Part shown: positions 403-16,901 of the stretch, piece after piece | How positions within the stretch are numbered: position 1 is the stretch's first letter | Layout of the letters: each line of letters opens with the position of its first letter | Assembly: GCA_019915015.1 (NCBI GenBank) | Contig: JAHBBC010000003.1 | Coordinates: 496,001 to 560,000 of the forward strand | Origin: Auriscalpium vulgare | Taxonomy: Eukaryota > Basidiomycota > Agaricomycetes > Russulales > Auriscalpiaceae | Length of the DNA stretch: 64,000 nucleotides | Direction of reading: 5' to 3' | Notes under the pieces: generated by a model | Seen by the model: the letters and a program-made list of their open reading frames with translations, nothing else | Database searches by the model: none | Told to the model about the DNA's origin: nothing | Made by a program: the position numbers and the translations under genes

Positions 403-3400
403 TCAAAGAGCGCCGACGCTCTTCCAGTACCCAATGTATTCCGCCAGATGCCTCTTGTCGAGCGCTGTACTCCTCACCAGTGTAGCTGAGTCCGACTTAG
501 CCACGCATGTACCGAGTATCACACCGCCCGAGGCCATCCTGAGGAAATCATTCTCCAAGAAATCCATGATCTTGAACGCCACGTTCTTCTCCGGATCGGA
601 GCCCAGCGCGCGTACGCGCTCCAACCACTCATCGTATGGAATGAGGGGAAGAGAGCCGTCATTGCCTCCAAGTAGAGACGCCAGGTTGTCGAGGAGGCCA
701 TACCACGATTGGCGCGAGGGATTTTCCATATGATACATTGGGCGCATGCTCTTAGCGAAGAGCAGTTCAGTGATGACATCCGCTGCGCGATTGACAGGCA
801 TCCACGATAGTGACTGATGCGGTGAACGGCGTCAGCGCGGCGCCATAAAATGGACAACTGAAGATACGCACGCCTTCAATGTTGGGCACCGCGCCCAGAT
901 GCTGTGATGTGCGGACGATGAGCGGGAAGTGCTCGCTTTCGTTCCAGGCACCGGAGCCCTCGGGGCCCGTCATCTGGCCGATGCGAACGCTCGACGTGAC
1001 AAGCAGGGACTCGTTGATCGGCTGCGCAGCGCCAGCGCCGTACAGCTCGGACGCCACCTGCAGGACGCGCTCGCACACCCACTTGGCCTCTGGGTACCCG
1101 AACTCGGCGGTGGTGGCGGCATCAAGGGGTGTCTCTGGCACATAGACAGGCCCCTCAGGGTGCAGAATGGGGAAACGTCCGACCACGGCGATAGAAGACG
1201 CAAACAGGATACGCCGAGGACGACTGTCTGACGGATTGGCGGCGGCGCTCAGCAGCGACAGGCGTGTCAGATTGCATACAGCCTTCACATGTGCCTCGAA
1301 CGAGGCAACGGTGCGGTTGAAATTGACGGGCCAAGCGTTGTGAATGACGTCCGTGACGTTGGACAGCTGCAGAGCGCGGACAGAGGTGAGTGAGCTTCAT
1401 GTGCCGCGAGTCGCGGACAGGAACGGCGTACCTGGGCGAATTCGTCCTCTGGCAACCCAAAATCTGGACGACTGGTGTCCGCTTCGAAGATAGTGACCTT
1501 GCGCCAGCCGTCCTCATCAATGAAGGCACCCCGTTTCTTCATGGCATCCGCCTGGCGCTGTCGCACATGTGCTCCACCGTGTTGTGTGCGGTTTAGGCAA
1601 ATGATTTCCTTGACGGAGGGGTCGCGCACAAGGCGCGAGAGGAGCATGCAGCCAAGGCTGCCTGTCGAGCCCGTAAGAATAACGACATGCTGGTCCGATG
1701 CTTGTCGAAGCGGAACTTGTGCGCGAGCCTGTCGAGCTCTTGCGGCCTCGTCCGCATAGGAGGCTAGCTCAGCCCGATACCGCTCAACCATTTCCTCCAT
1801 AACAGCGACGCGCCGTTCGTCCTTGCTCGACTCCAGATTGGTGCGCTGCGTCCCTGTCATGACGTCGGCGATGCTCCGGTGAATTTCACTGACAGATGGG
1901 TTCTCGAAGACAAACTCGGGCGACAAATCTTCCACCTGGAAGGGAAGGCCCTTGGTCACACGCAGGCCGTTCAGAAGAGCACGGCGCAGACGGTTAGCCT
2001 GTAGGCTGTCCATCCCGGCTTCGAAGAAATCGGCTTCGTCGGCAAAGGCGGTATCCTCTTCTAGTCCGATGGTGGAAACGACGAGGGTGCGGATCCATGC
2101 CAGGAGAGCCGCGCCGCTATCGTCGCTGGGGAGAGGAAGCGGTACTGCGCGAGTCATATCTGCACGTACATAGCAGTCCTTGATCTCCTCGTCGAAAGCC
2201 GAGAAGGTCGCCTTCCGCGCGAGGCTGCCCTTGTCCGTCCGAGAAAGCGGCTTCGTATCCGCCTGCGTGAAGATGACCATGTCTCGTGGGATCTTGGCAT
2301 GTTTGTCCATGAACGAGTTGCCACGTTCCAAATAAGAGTCGAGAGATAAAAGAAGGGAGTCCTCGTCCCGCGTGCTAACAGCGAGCTCGACCAGAAGACC
2401 AAGAGAGAACTGGCCATCGCCGAACACAAGAGCCGCCTTCACGTCGGGATGCTCGGCGATCGTCGTCTCCATGTTTGTCGGCCGCACCTTCTCGCCAGTA
2501 GCCAAAACAAGGAGATCGTCAGCTCTTCCAAGAATCTTGAACTGTTTGGGATCCTCGGGATGAACTTCCAAGAGGTCTTGTACGACAAAAGGCTCTGGCC
2601 AGCCGGGCGCTCGTCCGACAAGACGATAAGTGTCACTGTTATCTTCCAATTGGGAAACCTCGAGTGCAATATCTTCACGAGGAATGAGGTAGTGCCAATC
2701 GTAGCCTGGCGGTGGGCGTTGGATCGGCGCAATGGGACCGATTTCAGTTGCTCCTGAATAGTTGGATTTGATAGTCGGGTTAATTCGAAAGGACTTGGTT
2801 CACGACGGAGACGTACCCCAGTGATTGAGGAGTCGAACACCGTTGGAAACCAGCTCCTGCCCCACGGTCTCTTTCATCGGCGCACCTCCGATAGCGATGA
2901 AGTCTAGATTCTTCAAGGCGTTGAGGCCCGCAGAGCCAGGAAGGCGAACAATATCCTCCAAAATAGAGGGGACAGAGAGCATGAATTGCGCATTTGTCAA
3001 CTCCATGTTCGTAAGAGTCGTGCGGGCAGTGGGGATGATTGAAGCTGGAGGAAGGACAAAGGGCATCCCAATGGAAAGGGACAGGAAGGGAGCAAGTAGA
3101 CCAAAACCCTGGCACGGGCGTGAGCAATGCATTGTAAACTAGTGACGCGCGAACTTACGTGATACAGAGGCAAAGTAGAAACATTGAAGCCATAGGGCTC
3201 TCGCTGCTCTGGCAAACGATGGCAGCCGCCGTAGAGGAGTAAGTATGCCTGTGCGTGGAATATAGGCTTGGGGAGCCCAGTCGTGCCGGATGAGTGAAGA
3301 ATGACCGCATCGAGGTCATCATACTTGAAGGCGGTGTACGAGGGTGGTATAGTGAGGTGGACGAGCTCGGCGTGGTCGCCGCATAGTAGATTCTCGAAGC

Positions 3401-3964
3401 TTAGCGCATCCACAAATCGAGGCGCACCACCCGGTAGATCCTTCACCAGCGGGAGGGTGTCTTTAACGGATCGGGAGACCTGTGCATTGACAAGCACGCT
3501 CGAAGGCGACGTAGCTTTGACGAGATGGGCGATAGCAACAGGTGTAAGCCTTGCAGACAGTAAGAGGACCTTTGCACGACGTCAGAACATAACGGACACA
3601 CTGCGAGGGCGGGCCTTACCGGTGTTCCAATTCGCAGCAACGCGGCCATGTAGATGAATATTCCGATGTCGCTTCCAAGGAGAATGGCAACCGGGAATGT
3701 CTTCTCGTCGCGGCTGGTCCGCCCTCGCGTCGCGCCAGAGCTGACGAGCCATGCAGATGCCCGCTCAACGGCGGCCTGAAGCTCTGCAAATGTGATCTTG
3801 CACGGCGGCGCATCTGGGCGCACTTGGAGTCCAAAGACGTGATCTGGGTTGTAACGTGAATTGAACTCTATGAGCTCAGGTAGCGAGTTGACTCCCTGCT
3901 GGGAGGGCAGCTCGTATCCGAGGTTAAGATGCGGGCGAATGAAGGTGTTGACTTGGTATGGCAT
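403..3964 (-). CDS. NRPS-like carboxylate reductase (A-T-R), cluster gene
   Basis: Adenylate-forming reductase of 1091 aa in six exons (3964-3620, 3569-3159, 3108-2817, 2753-1432, 1366-872, 813-403), which join in frame. The N-terminal adenylation domain has the A3 loop HSSGTTGLPKP, the GATEIGP block and the A8-like GRADD block. A thiolation domain follows, with the phosphopantetheine Ser in GMDSLQ. The C-terminal thioester reductase has the NAD(P)-binding TGSTGSLG and the YPEAK catalytic pair. Enzymes of this build activate a carboxylic acid as AMP ester, load it on the carrier and release it reductively as an aldehyde. There is no condensation domain. The gene is divergent from the FAD monooxygenase and near the PKS, which suggests (inference) that its substrate is the aryl acid made by that PKS, as in the StbA/StbB pair of Stachybotrys. 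It is not a canonical aminoadipate reductase, which carries an extra N-terminal region. Confidence 0.92.
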
Positions 3965-16100: not shown

Positions 16101-16901
16101 TGATACACGACGGTAGCGGCTTGGTCAATTACATCGCTCGTCTGTCGCGGCAGGACCGCGATCTGTGGGGCATTCACAACCCACACTTCATCAGCAGCCA
16201 GCCCTGGGACTCCGTCGTTGCCATGGCAGCTGAGTACGGGAATTATGCGGTGCAGACAACGTCGGAGCCGCTGCTTCTTGGAGGTACGTGTCCAGTATGC
16301 TGTTCAGCAACATTGGTTTGCTCATCCTTTCTTCCATAGGATGGTCATTCGGTGGTGTCGTTGCTTTCGAAGCCGCGCGCCAGCTGCTCAAGAAAGGAGT
16401 TGCTGTCAAGGGAGTCGTCCTCATCGACTCGCCCTGCCCGCTCAAACACGTCCCCCTCTCCGACGCTCTGATTGACTCTGTCGCTCGTCTCGATGGACGA
16501 AACACAGTCTCTGATGTCGCCCAACTCGTCAAGCGCCAGTTTCAGATGAACTCCCGTATGCTCGGCCACTACGACCCTCTCGCAAGTGGGGGCCCATATC
16601 CCCGTCTTGTGCTCCTCCGCTCCAGTGAGGGCTTCAATCCCGCAGGCGTGCCAGACGTGCCCGTGTGGCTCGCGGATCGCAGCGATCCCCGCCAAGCCGT
16701 TGCGGGTTGGGAGGGCATAGTCGGCACGTCAGTCAAGACCATTGATATCCCTGGCCATCACTTCCAACCTTTCCACACCGCCAATGTCAGTATCATGCAC
16801 TTCTGGTGTGACTGCGACAGTGACTAATCCATCCACGACAGATTGCAGGTGTCTCTCGTGCAATCTATGAAGGTTCTGCGTATTTGGATAATTCAATCTG
16901 A
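10148..16901 (+). CDS. Non-reducing polyketide synthase, SAT-KS-AT-PT-ACP-ACP-TE
   Basis: Iterative type I PKS of 2124 aa in eight exons (10148-10789, 10847-11479, 11533-11863, 11912-12096, 12150-13387, 13444-16283, 16340-16785, 16842-16901), in frame throughout. Domains in order: starter-unit transacylase with GFSSG where GxCxG is usual; ketosynthase from EPIAIVGMA, with Cys in DTACSSS and His in VEAHGTGT and VKANIGHLEA; acyltransferase with GHSLGEYAAQ; product template with His in GHSVGDHPLCP and Asp in HPVFMDTMLH; two carrier domains, GVDSLMS and GLDSLTS; thioesterase with GWSFGG and the C-terminal GHHFQPF. There is no methyltransferase and no reductive domain. This build is that of basidiomycete orsellinic-acid synthases such as ArmB of Armillaria. 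An aromatic tetraketide acid released by the TE is the expected product (inference). The neighbouring A-T-R enzyme could supply the reduction the PKS lacks. Confidence 0.96.

What the first reader, a model, noticed from the sequence alone, without database searches (positions are those of the whole stretch)
403..16901. Four-gene cluster pairing a thioesterase-type non-reducing PKS with an A-T-R carboxylate reductase, FAD hydroxylase and SDR
Sequence shows an SAT-KS-AT-PT-ACP-ACP-TE synthase without any reductive release domain, and a stand-alone adenylation-thiolation-reductase enzyme 6 kb away. Between them sit a phenol-hydroxylase-type monooxygenase and an SDR. Known precedent: in Stachybotrys, StbA (PKS) and StbB (NRPS-like reductase) make an aryl aldehyde. 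Inference: here the PKS acid is reduced in trans to an aldehyde and hydroxylated, giving a phenolic aldehyde, alcohol or quinone. No prenyltransferase or P450 is in the window, and the cluster starts 400 bp from the left edge, so it may extend. I know of no described basidiomycete product with exactly this set.
Basis: partly seen in the sequence, partly recalled or inferred. Interest (0 to 1): 0.85.

Follow-up and report, generated by a model that had tools for sequence, protein, structure and literature searches.

The report
Orsellinaldehyde gene cluster in Auriscalpium mushroom
Four neighbouring genes of an ear-pick mushroom (Auriscalpium) match the core of the published lion's-mane hericenone cluster and very probably make a small phenolic aldehyde and then oxidise it further; the oxidising enzyme carries an unusual active-site change that makes its exact reaction worth testing.

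Summary
Window 403-16901 encodes an A-T-R carboxylate reductase (CAR), a phenol-hydroxylase-fold FAD monooxygenase, an SDR and a SAT-KS-AT-PT-ACP-ACP-TE synthase, in Auriscalpium (Russulales, not a polypore). It is the only PKS found in the genome. The claim that no basidiomycete cluster has this set is wrong: the Hericium erinaceus her cluster (PMC11643632) lists PKS, SDR, FAD monooxygenase and CAR in the same order, and HerA+HerB made orsellinic acid and orsellinaldehyde. One T1PKS-NRPS-like cluster was already counted in each of three Auriscalpium genomes (PMC8401616). New here: (1) reductase and monooxygenase share a contig in 18 of 23 species from several orders; (2) the monooxygenase-SDR pair is duplicated on another contig, without PKS or CAR, under purifying selection; (3) the monooxygenase clade has Asp where phenol hydroxylase and VibO have the essential Tyr289 (36 of 37, against Tyr in 81 of 81 outgroup proteins). 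Best reading: PKS to orsellinic acid, CAR to orsellinaldehyde, the monooxygenase oxygenates the ring, the SDR reduces. Steps 1-2 are strong by homology; steps 3-4 are inferred. New member of a known kind, with one enzyme of uncertain chemistry.

The parts
403..3964 (-). A-T-R carboxylic acid reductase (HerB-like), 1091 aa, 6 exons
4033..4038 (-). TATAAA; first base 74 bp before the reductase start codon
3965..4821 (.). shared divergent intergenic region between reductase and monooxygenase, 857 bp
4748..4753 (+). TATAAA; first base 74 bp before the monooxygenase start codon
4822..7271 (+). FAD monooxygenase, phenol-hydroxylase fold (FAD_binding_3 + Phe_hydrox_dim), 700 aa, 7 exons; Asp249 at the PHHY Tyr289 column
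7786..7791 (+). TATAAA; first base 82 bp before the SDR start codon
7868..8731 (+). short-chain dehydrogenase/reductase, 252 aa, 3 exons; nearest solved relatives include 3-oxoacyl-ACP, versicolorin and tetra-/trihydroxynaphthalene reductases
10058..10063 (+). TATAAA; first base 90 bp before the PKS start codon
10148..16901 (+). non-reducing PKS SAT-KS-AT-PT-ACP-ACP-TE, 2124 aa, 8 exons; predicted orsellinic acid synthase
4445..8947 (.). span whose parts (monooxygenase with promoter; SDR with 3' flank) have DNA copies at contig C27:319822-324468, with a further SDR copy at C27:327499-328502

Best explanation
A four-gene orsellinate-derived biosynthetic cluster, very probably orthologous to the core of the Hericium her cluster. 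Step 1 (about 0.9): the PKS joins acetate units into orsellinic acid and its TE releases the free acid. Step 2 (about 0.85): the divergently transcribed A-T-R enzyme adenylates the acid, loads it on its carrier domain and reduces it with NAD(P)H to orsellinaldehyde. Step 3 (ring oxygenation of some kind about 0.7; simple ortho-hydroxylation about 0.45): the FAD monooxygenase oxygenates orsellinaldehyde or its benzyl alcohol. Step 4 (about 0.5): the SDR, whose solved relatives reduce ketones and polyhydroxyarenes, reduces the monooxygenase product (a quinone, dienone or aldehyde). The product is thus a hydroxylated orsellinaldehyde, benzyl alcohol or (hydro)quinone that may be prenylated elsewhere. 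Domain content, gene order, phylogeny and duplication are shown here; all chemistry is inferred.
For: Domains and active sites intact. PKS in a starred 17-row clade with P0251, read by me as BY1 PKS2, and Armillaria; PKS2 of that fungus and ArmB are named as characterised orsellinic acid synthases in PMC10401856 (passages). Reductase in a 9-row clade (100*) with Hericium alpestre and Dentipellis. Its A4 motif LPLYHGFG aligns with MPLYHVVG of 4-chlorobenzoate-CoA ligase. Her cluster of the same order, with HerA+HerB shown to give orsellinic acid and orsellinaldehyde. Reductase and monooxygenase on contigs of equal length in 18 of 23 species, all three core genes in 7 of 20. Monooxygenase and SDR both copied at C27 in the same order and under purifying selection, dN/dS 0.08-0.18, so they probably act in linked steps. 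All four genes have TATAAA at -74 to -90.
Against: No expression or metabolite data. H. erinaceus HerA/HerB sequences could not be compared; the link runs through H. alpestre, Dentipellis and gene order read from locus numbers. Tyr289, essential in VibO and called critical in PHHY, is Asp here. Hericenones, as I recall them, carry no extra ring hydroxyl, so the her product does not explain the monooxygenase. No word of 8 or more bases is shared by the three promoters tested, and the C27 copies lack an exact TATAAA in the stretches tested. In most species the PKS is not on the reductase's contig (same length in 10 of 36). In the A-domain structure search an L-proline carrier-protein ligase scores nearly as well (5e-10) as the chlorobenzoate ligase (1.6e-10).
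Confidence: 0.65

Rival explanations
1. The cluster makes a hericenone-like prenylated meroterpenoid, with the prenyltransferase acting in trans from another locus as proposed in Hericium.
For: Same core order as the her cluster. The genome holds many UbiA loci (34 exon matches, by my grouping 17 places over the cut-off), three of them at C4:1327818-1336932 beside a P450.
Against: No UbiA match on contig C3, and UbiA genes are not specific evidence. In Hericium the product of the candidate prenyltransferase is itself unconfirmed. The her-cluster MFS gene between PKS and SDR was not predicted here; no Fungal_trans match on C3 (35 of 35 candidates scored) and no second NAD_binding_4 match near the cluster (32 of 32 scored).
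Confidence: 0.2
2. The monooxygenase is not a simple hydroxylase but carries out a Dakin-type deformylating hydroxylation or a Baeyer-Villiger ring insertion; the SDR reduces the resulting hydroxyquinone or oxepinone, feeding redox-active or melanin-like products.
For: VibO, the same fold, makes an oxepinone after a CAR and an aldehyde reductase. Tyr289 is replaced by Asp throughout the clade. The SDR's nearest solved relatives include versicolorin and hydroxynaphthalene reductases. Orsellinic aldehyde feeds a melanin pathway in Ustilago maydis (review passages, PMC10098057).
Against: VibO keeps Tyr289 and gives no product as Y289A, Y289F or Y289N, so VibO-type chemistry does not follow from the sequence either.
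Confidence: 0.25
3. The reductase or monooxygenase handles another aromatic acid, for example a lignin- or pinecone-derived phenol, and its place beside the PKS reflects shared regulation only.
For: In 11 of the 18 species with the reductase-monooxygenase pair no PKS row is on that contig. The monooxygenase-SDR pair has a copy without PKS or CAR. Auriscalpium lives on pinecones (PMC8401616 passages).
Against: Four of those 11 contigs are under 50 kb and two species have no PKS row listed at all. HerB in a cluster of the same order reduces orsellinic acid. PKS, monooxygenase and reductase share a contig in 7 of 20 species, and the TATA placement is common to all four genes.
Confidence: 0.08

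Closest known systems
her (hericenone) cluster of Hericium erinaceus, PMC11643632
   Same: Order Russulales; PKS - SDR - FAD monooxygenase - CAR in the same order by locus number, with an amino-acid permease on the CAR side (Table 1)
   Different: By locus number her has an MFS gene between PKS and SDR, and an ALDH, a second NRPS-like gene, a transcription factor and a flavoprotein on the other side of the PKS. No gene model lies between SDR and PKS here; no Fungal_trans or second NAD_binding_4 match lies near; ALDH was not exhaustively tested. The permease here lies beyond an HRQ1-like helicase and is interrupted by an element with 77-bp inverted repeats. Orientation of the her genes was not seen (figures are not held)
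T1PKS-NRPS-like cluster counted in A. vulgare, A. orientale and A. microsporum, PMC8401616
   Same: One per genome and no lone T1PKS (Table 3), as in this genome (one PKS found)
   Different: A count only, in the passages and table that I saw; no gene content, product or comparison with Hericium there
StbA/StbB and AscC/AscB (Stachybotrys, Acremonium)
   Different: Ascomycete; HerA and HerB are about 25% and 32% identical to them (Table 1); those clusters include a prenyltransferase
Pks3/Pks4 + Pks5 of Ustilago maydis (review PMC10098057; PMC10064546)
   Same: Basidiomycete orsellinic acid synthesis followed by reduction to orsellinic aldehyde by an AMP-ACP-R protein
   Different: Two PKSs, a P450 and Vbs1; melanin product; no phenol-hydroxylase-type enzyme named in the passages seen
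BvCAR - BvAR - VibO of vibralactone biosynthesis, PMC10257657
   Same: CAR, then aldehyde reductase, then phenol-hydroxylase-fold FAD monooxygenase
   Different: Substrate from 4-hydroxybenzoate, not a PKS; genes held unlikely to be clustered; VibO keeps Tyr289
Phenol hydroxylase PHHY, PDB 1foh/1pn0
   Same: Closest solved relative of the monooxygenase clade; Asp54 column Asp in 34 of 34 clade rows with a residue, PRE arginine in 36 of 36 (number R281 recalled)
   Different: Tyr289 replaced by Asp, in a loop longer than in PHHY (a longer loop also occurs with Tyr in P0160)

Membership tests
Basidiomycete clade VIII NR-PKS (orsellinic acid synthases) | SAT-KS-AT-PT-ACP-TE order | tested here: met
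Basidiomycete clade VIII NR-PKS (orsellinic acid synthases) | intact catalytic residues of KS, AT, PT, ACP, TE; GxSxG in SAT | tested here: met
   column make-up over 120 homologues: SAT serine 117 (3 gaps), KS cysteine 120, PT histidine 119 (1 gap), TE histidine 106 (14 gaps)
Basidiomycete clade VIII NR-PKS (orsellinic acid synthases) | groups with a characterised orsellinic acid synthase | tested here: met
   FastTree, 17-row clade 100* with P0251, which I read from its deposited name (PKS2, Agaricomycetes sp.) as BY1 PKS2
Basidiomycete clade VIII NR-PKS (orsellinic acid synthases) | releases orsellinic acid | not testable with these tools
   needs expression
Fungal aryl carboxylic acid reductase, HerB type | A-T-R with intact carrier serine, NAD(P) motif and aryl-type A4 | tested here: met
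   the meaning of the A4 residue (His as in aryl-CoA ligases, not the Asp of amino-acid A domains) is recalled
Fungal aryl carboxylic acid reductase, HerB type | phylogeny with Hericium reductases | tested here: met
   via H. alpestre P0003, HerB itself not available
Fungal aryl carboxylic acid reductase, HerB type | reduces orsellinic acid | not testable with these tools
   shown for HerB only
her (hericenone) cluster | PKS - SDR - FMO - CAR in this order | tested here: met
   (her order by locus number)
her (hericenone) cluster | MFS gene between PKS and SDR | tested here: not met
   no model scoring above 10 between 8731 and the PKS; the genome MFS search scored only 9 of 218 candidates
her (hericenone) cluster | transcription factor and second NRPS-like gene near the PKS | tested here: not met
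   no Fungal_trans match on C3 (35 of 35 scored; its 14 prokaryote controls do not carry the family); NAD_binding_4 matches on C3 are this gene and two at 1.91 and 2.00 Mb (32 of 32 scored)
her (hericenone) cluster | aldehyde dehydrogenase near the PKS | tested here: inconclusive
   no Aldedh match on C3, but 11 of 69 candidates scored; 8 of 16 right-flank models were Pfam-scanned, none an ALDH
her (hericenone) cluster | amino-acid permease beside CAR | tested here: inconclusive
   present about 6 kb left, beyond a helicase, and interrupted by an inserted element
her (hericenone) cluster | dedicated prenyltransferase | tested here: inconclusive
   UbiA genes abundant elsewhere in the genome, none on C3; no DMATS match, but that control rang nowhere
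Phenol 2-monooxygenase (PHHY) | FAD_binding_3 plus Phe_hydrox_dim, catalytic Asp54 and the PRE arginine | tested here: met
Phenol 2-monooxygenase (PHHY) | Tyr289 | tested here: not met
   39 clade rows: Asp 36, Ala 1, gap 2; Tyr in 81 of 81 outgroup rows
   no aminoadipate or amino-acid reductase was itself put in the tree; the NCBIfam aminoadipate model scores 64 bits against a cut-off of 1030 on the Artomyces orthologue P0001

The most novel reading that the evidence does not exclude
The reductase-linked monooxygenases form a new catalytic subclass of the phenol-hydroxylase fold, with Asp in place of the essential Tyr289 (PREPINGKPAARFD loop). Together with the carboxylate reductase they make one ancient, conserved and still unknown oxygenated orsellinaldehyde product across Russulales, Gloeophyllales, Jaapiales and Agaricales; hericenones would then be a lineage-specific offshoot of this pathway rather than its original product.
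Probability: 0.3. Interest if true: 0.65.

Novelty: new member of a known kind. Interest (0 to 1): 0.4.

Why it matters
It moves a supposedly unprecedented cluster into the hericenone-type family and gives it an organism. It also shows that the reductase-monooxygenase pair is widely conserved in mushrooms, and that this flavoenzyme clade lacks a tyrosine which a characterised relative cannot do without, so the step after orsellinaldehyde, left open in the Hericium paper, becomes directly testable.

Tried and rejected
Rejected: amino-acid or aminoadipate reductase identity for the A-T-R protein (limits in the membership table); extension of the cluster to the left; an unusual SAT, since the GxSxG serine is general in these mushroom PKSs (PMC10401856 passages); a common promoter word: no 8-mer is shared by the three window promoters tested (the PKS one cut to 1000 bp), 8 shared 7-mers against a mean of 15 in random windows, one of them (CAGCGCC) in all six promoters; relics of PKS or CAR at the C27 locus, none by tblastn. 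A DMATS search found nothing, but its control also found nothing.

Led nowhere: structure prediction of the monooxygenase, so the Asp249 argument rests on sequence alignment alone. Literature searches for the monooxygenase or SDR step listed the her paper and the VibO paper; I saw no characterised member of this monooxygenase clade in the listings.

Limits: the contig-length table was typed by hand from named rows of the best-120 lists. Left out were unnamed metagenome rows, reductase rows from P0049 on (45% identity and below; one Collybiopsis row at 44% was kept) and PKS rows of species without a partner row. One PKS row (Tricholoma furcatifolium) was missed; with it the monooxygenase-PKS count is 11 of 26, not 11 of 25. 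Different assemblies of one species can give false negatives (Agrocybe). The PKS tree is FastTree with 41 of the 120 listed homologues, the reductase tree a quick IQ-TREE run without bootstrap with 53 of 120. Capped searches: P450 92 of 342, ALDH 11 of 69, MFS 9 of 218 candidates scored. Orders other than Russulales for the kin species are recalled.
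Full report
What is there. Window 403-16901 holds four intact intron-containing genes: an A-T-R carboxylic acid reductase (403-3964, minus strand), and on the plus strand an FAD monooxygenase (4822-7271), an SDR (7868-8731) and a SAT-KS-AT-PT-ACP-ACP-TE polyketide synthase (10148-16901). 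Two of them agree over their whole length, at 99% identity, with proteins deposited for Auriscalpium vulgare. Each gene has a TATAAA whose first base lies 74 (reductase), 74 (monooxygenase), 82 (SDR) or 90 (PKS) bp before the start codon; the whole 64-kb window holds 15 such words on both strands where shuffles give a mean of 5 and at most 10. Reductase and monooxygenase are divergently transcribed from a shared 857-bp region.

Organism and genome. The window is contig C3:496001-560000 of a 51.6-Mb fungal genome. The 99% matches place it in Auriscalpium vulgare or a very close species (Russulales). A KS search and an AT search each find this PKS and, besides it, only matches on contig C16, KS and AT within 6 kb of each other, which I read as the fatty acid synthase. 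A 2021 genome paper counted exactly one T1PKS-NRPS-like cluster and no lone T1PKS in A. vulgare, A. orientale and A. microsporum (PMC8401616, passages and Table 3 seen); it is presumably this cluster.

Precedent. In Hericium erinaceus, also Russulales, Table 1 of the her paper lists, by rising locus number, herA (PKS), an MFS transporter, an SDR, an FAD-binding monooxygenase, herB (CAR) and a phenylalanine permease (PMC11643632; main text parts 1 and 2 and Table 1 seen, figures not held). HerA alone gave orsellinic acid and HerA+HerB gave orsellinic aldehyde in Aspergillus oryzae. The authors left the monooxygenase and SDR steps open.

Phylogeny. The reductase sits with Artomyces (99*), inside a 9-row clade (100*) that also holds Hericium alpestre, Dentipellis, Amylostereum, Vararia and Peniophora, all Russulales by recall (54 rows). 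The PKS sits with its A. vulgare copy and Artomyces, inside a 17-row clade (100*) that contains P0251 and Armillaria (42 rows). P0251 is deposited as PKS2 of 'Agaricomycetes sp.'; I read it as BY1 PKS2. PKS1 and PKS2 of a stereaceous fungus and ArmB are named as characterised orsellinic acid synthases in PMC10401856 (passages).

Conservation of the set. Taking equal contig length in the search tables as a sign of one contig, reductase and monooxygenase are together in 18 of 23 species that have both listed, reductase and PKS in 10 of 36, monooxygenase and PKS in 11 of 26, and all three in 7 of 20. In 11 of the 18 pair species no PKS row is on that contig; four of those contigs are under 50 kb. 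Neighbouring locus tags (Tricholomella D9615_006785, 006786 and 006799; Paramarasmius VNI00_004116 and 004118) support tight linkage in two cases. The reductase-monooxygenase pair is thus the most conserved unit, across Russulales, Gloeophyllales, Jaapia and Agaricales (orders recalled). Twenty-one species with a reductase row had no monooxygenase row listed, Hericium alpestre and Pleurotus ostreatus among them; the lists are capped, so this is not absence.

Satellite locus. Contig C27 holds a second monooxygenase (321693-324133, minus, 89% identical) followed in the same order and orientation by a second SDR (320029-320900, 93%), and a third SDR at 327524-328387 (85%). DNA homology with window 1-18000 lies at 4445-4538, 4586-7272, 7659-7732 and 7844-8947, and neither reductase nor PKS has a trace there by blastn or tblastn. 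dN/dS is 0.13 for the monooxygenases and 0.08-0.18 for the SDRs, so the copies are constrained. The two genes behave as a functional pair. The C27 copies lack an exact TATAAA in the upstream stretches tested.

The monooxygenase. A profile of 26 clade members finds phenol hydroxylase (1foh, 1pn0), another phenol 2-monooxygenase (8r2u), 3-hydroxybenzoate hydroxylase (2dkh) and VibO (7yj0) as nearest solved structures. Asp54 and the PRE arginine of phenol hydroxylase are kept. The column of Tyr289, however, is Asp in 36 of 39 clade rows (1 Ala, 2 gaps), against Tyr in 81 of 81 outgroup rows, and Asp in 26 of 26 rows of alignment A1. The loop before it (PREPINGKPAARFD) is longer than in PHHY, though one outgroup protein (P0160) has a long loop with Tyr. 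In VibO, Y289A, Y289F and Y289N give no product, and the authors call D54, I279 and Y289 critical for hydroxylation in phenol hydroxylase (PMC10257657 passages). Ring hydroxylation is therefore likely but not to be taken for granted; a Dakin-type or Baeyer-Villiger reaction stays open. The structure job failed and later requests were not accepted.

The SDR. Its nearest solved relatives include 3-oxoacyl-ACP reductases, a 17beta-hydroxysteroid dehydrogenase, versicolorin reductases and tetra- and trihydroxynaphthalene reductases, so reduction of a quinone or dienone produced by the monooxygenase is as plausible as reduction of the aldehyde. Vibralactone biosynthesis gives a parallel of CAR, aldehyde reductase and then an FAD monooxygenase of this fold.

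The reductase. A-T-R domains and motifs are intact. The A4 motif aligns with that of 4-chlorobenzoate-CoA ligase (1.6e-10), but an L-proline carrier-protein ligase follows at 5e-10, so the structure ranking alone does not settle aryl against amino acid; phylogeny and the her precedent do the work.

Differences from her. No gene model lies between SDR and PKS, where her has an MFS gene. No Fungal_trans match lies on C3 (35 of 35 candidates scored) and no second NAD_binding_4 match near the cluster (32 of 32). ALDH and MFS searches were capped (11 of 69 and 9 of 218 scored), and 8 of 16 right-flank models were Pfam-scanned, so an ALDH further right is not excluded. A flavoprotein (PF02441) and an MFS transporter lie about 20 kb to the left. 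The amino-acid permease left of the cluster is interrupted by a 3.4-kb element with 77-bp inverted repeats at 97% identity.

Verdict. A real, intact cluster and a new member of a known kind, the her-type orsellinaldehyde clusters. The unexplained and testable part is the chemistry of the Asp-for-Tyr monooxygenase clade and the identity of its conserved product.

Noticed in passing
G000:C27:319822-328502 (loci L054, L055): Satellite locus with a second FAD monooxygenase and two SDR copies, no PKS or CAR, under purifying selection.
   Followed up: yes
G000:C6:926881-930331: A fourth relative of the cluster SDR (64-66% identical) lies about 1 kb from an aldehyde dehydrogenase match; the her cluster of Hericium has both an SDR and an ALDH.
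   Followed up: no
G000:C3:485291-488670 (L007/L006): A 3.4-kb element with 77-bp terminal inverted repeats (97%) sits inside an amino-acid permease gene left of the cluster; it looks like a DNA transposon. Described only.
   Followed up: partly
G000:C4:1324582-1336932: Three UbiA-type loci within 9 kb beside a P450, a possible prenyl or terpenoid cluster.
   Followed up: no
G000:C20:809361-925117, C19 and C8: Many further NAD_binding_4 / A-T-R matches, several in a row on C20.
   Followed up: no
window 21992-27104: RNA-dependent RNA polymerase of the RNA-silencing type (PF05183).
   Followed up: no
window 40276-42508: Separate acyl-CoA-ligase-like AMP-binding enzyme, not next to the cluster.
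   Followed up: no
G000:C3:475319-476609 (L007/L008): PF02441 flavoprotein about 20 kb left of the cluster; Hericium's cluster also lists a flavoprotein and a Bondarzewia PKS record (P0254) carries the same domain.
   Followed up: no
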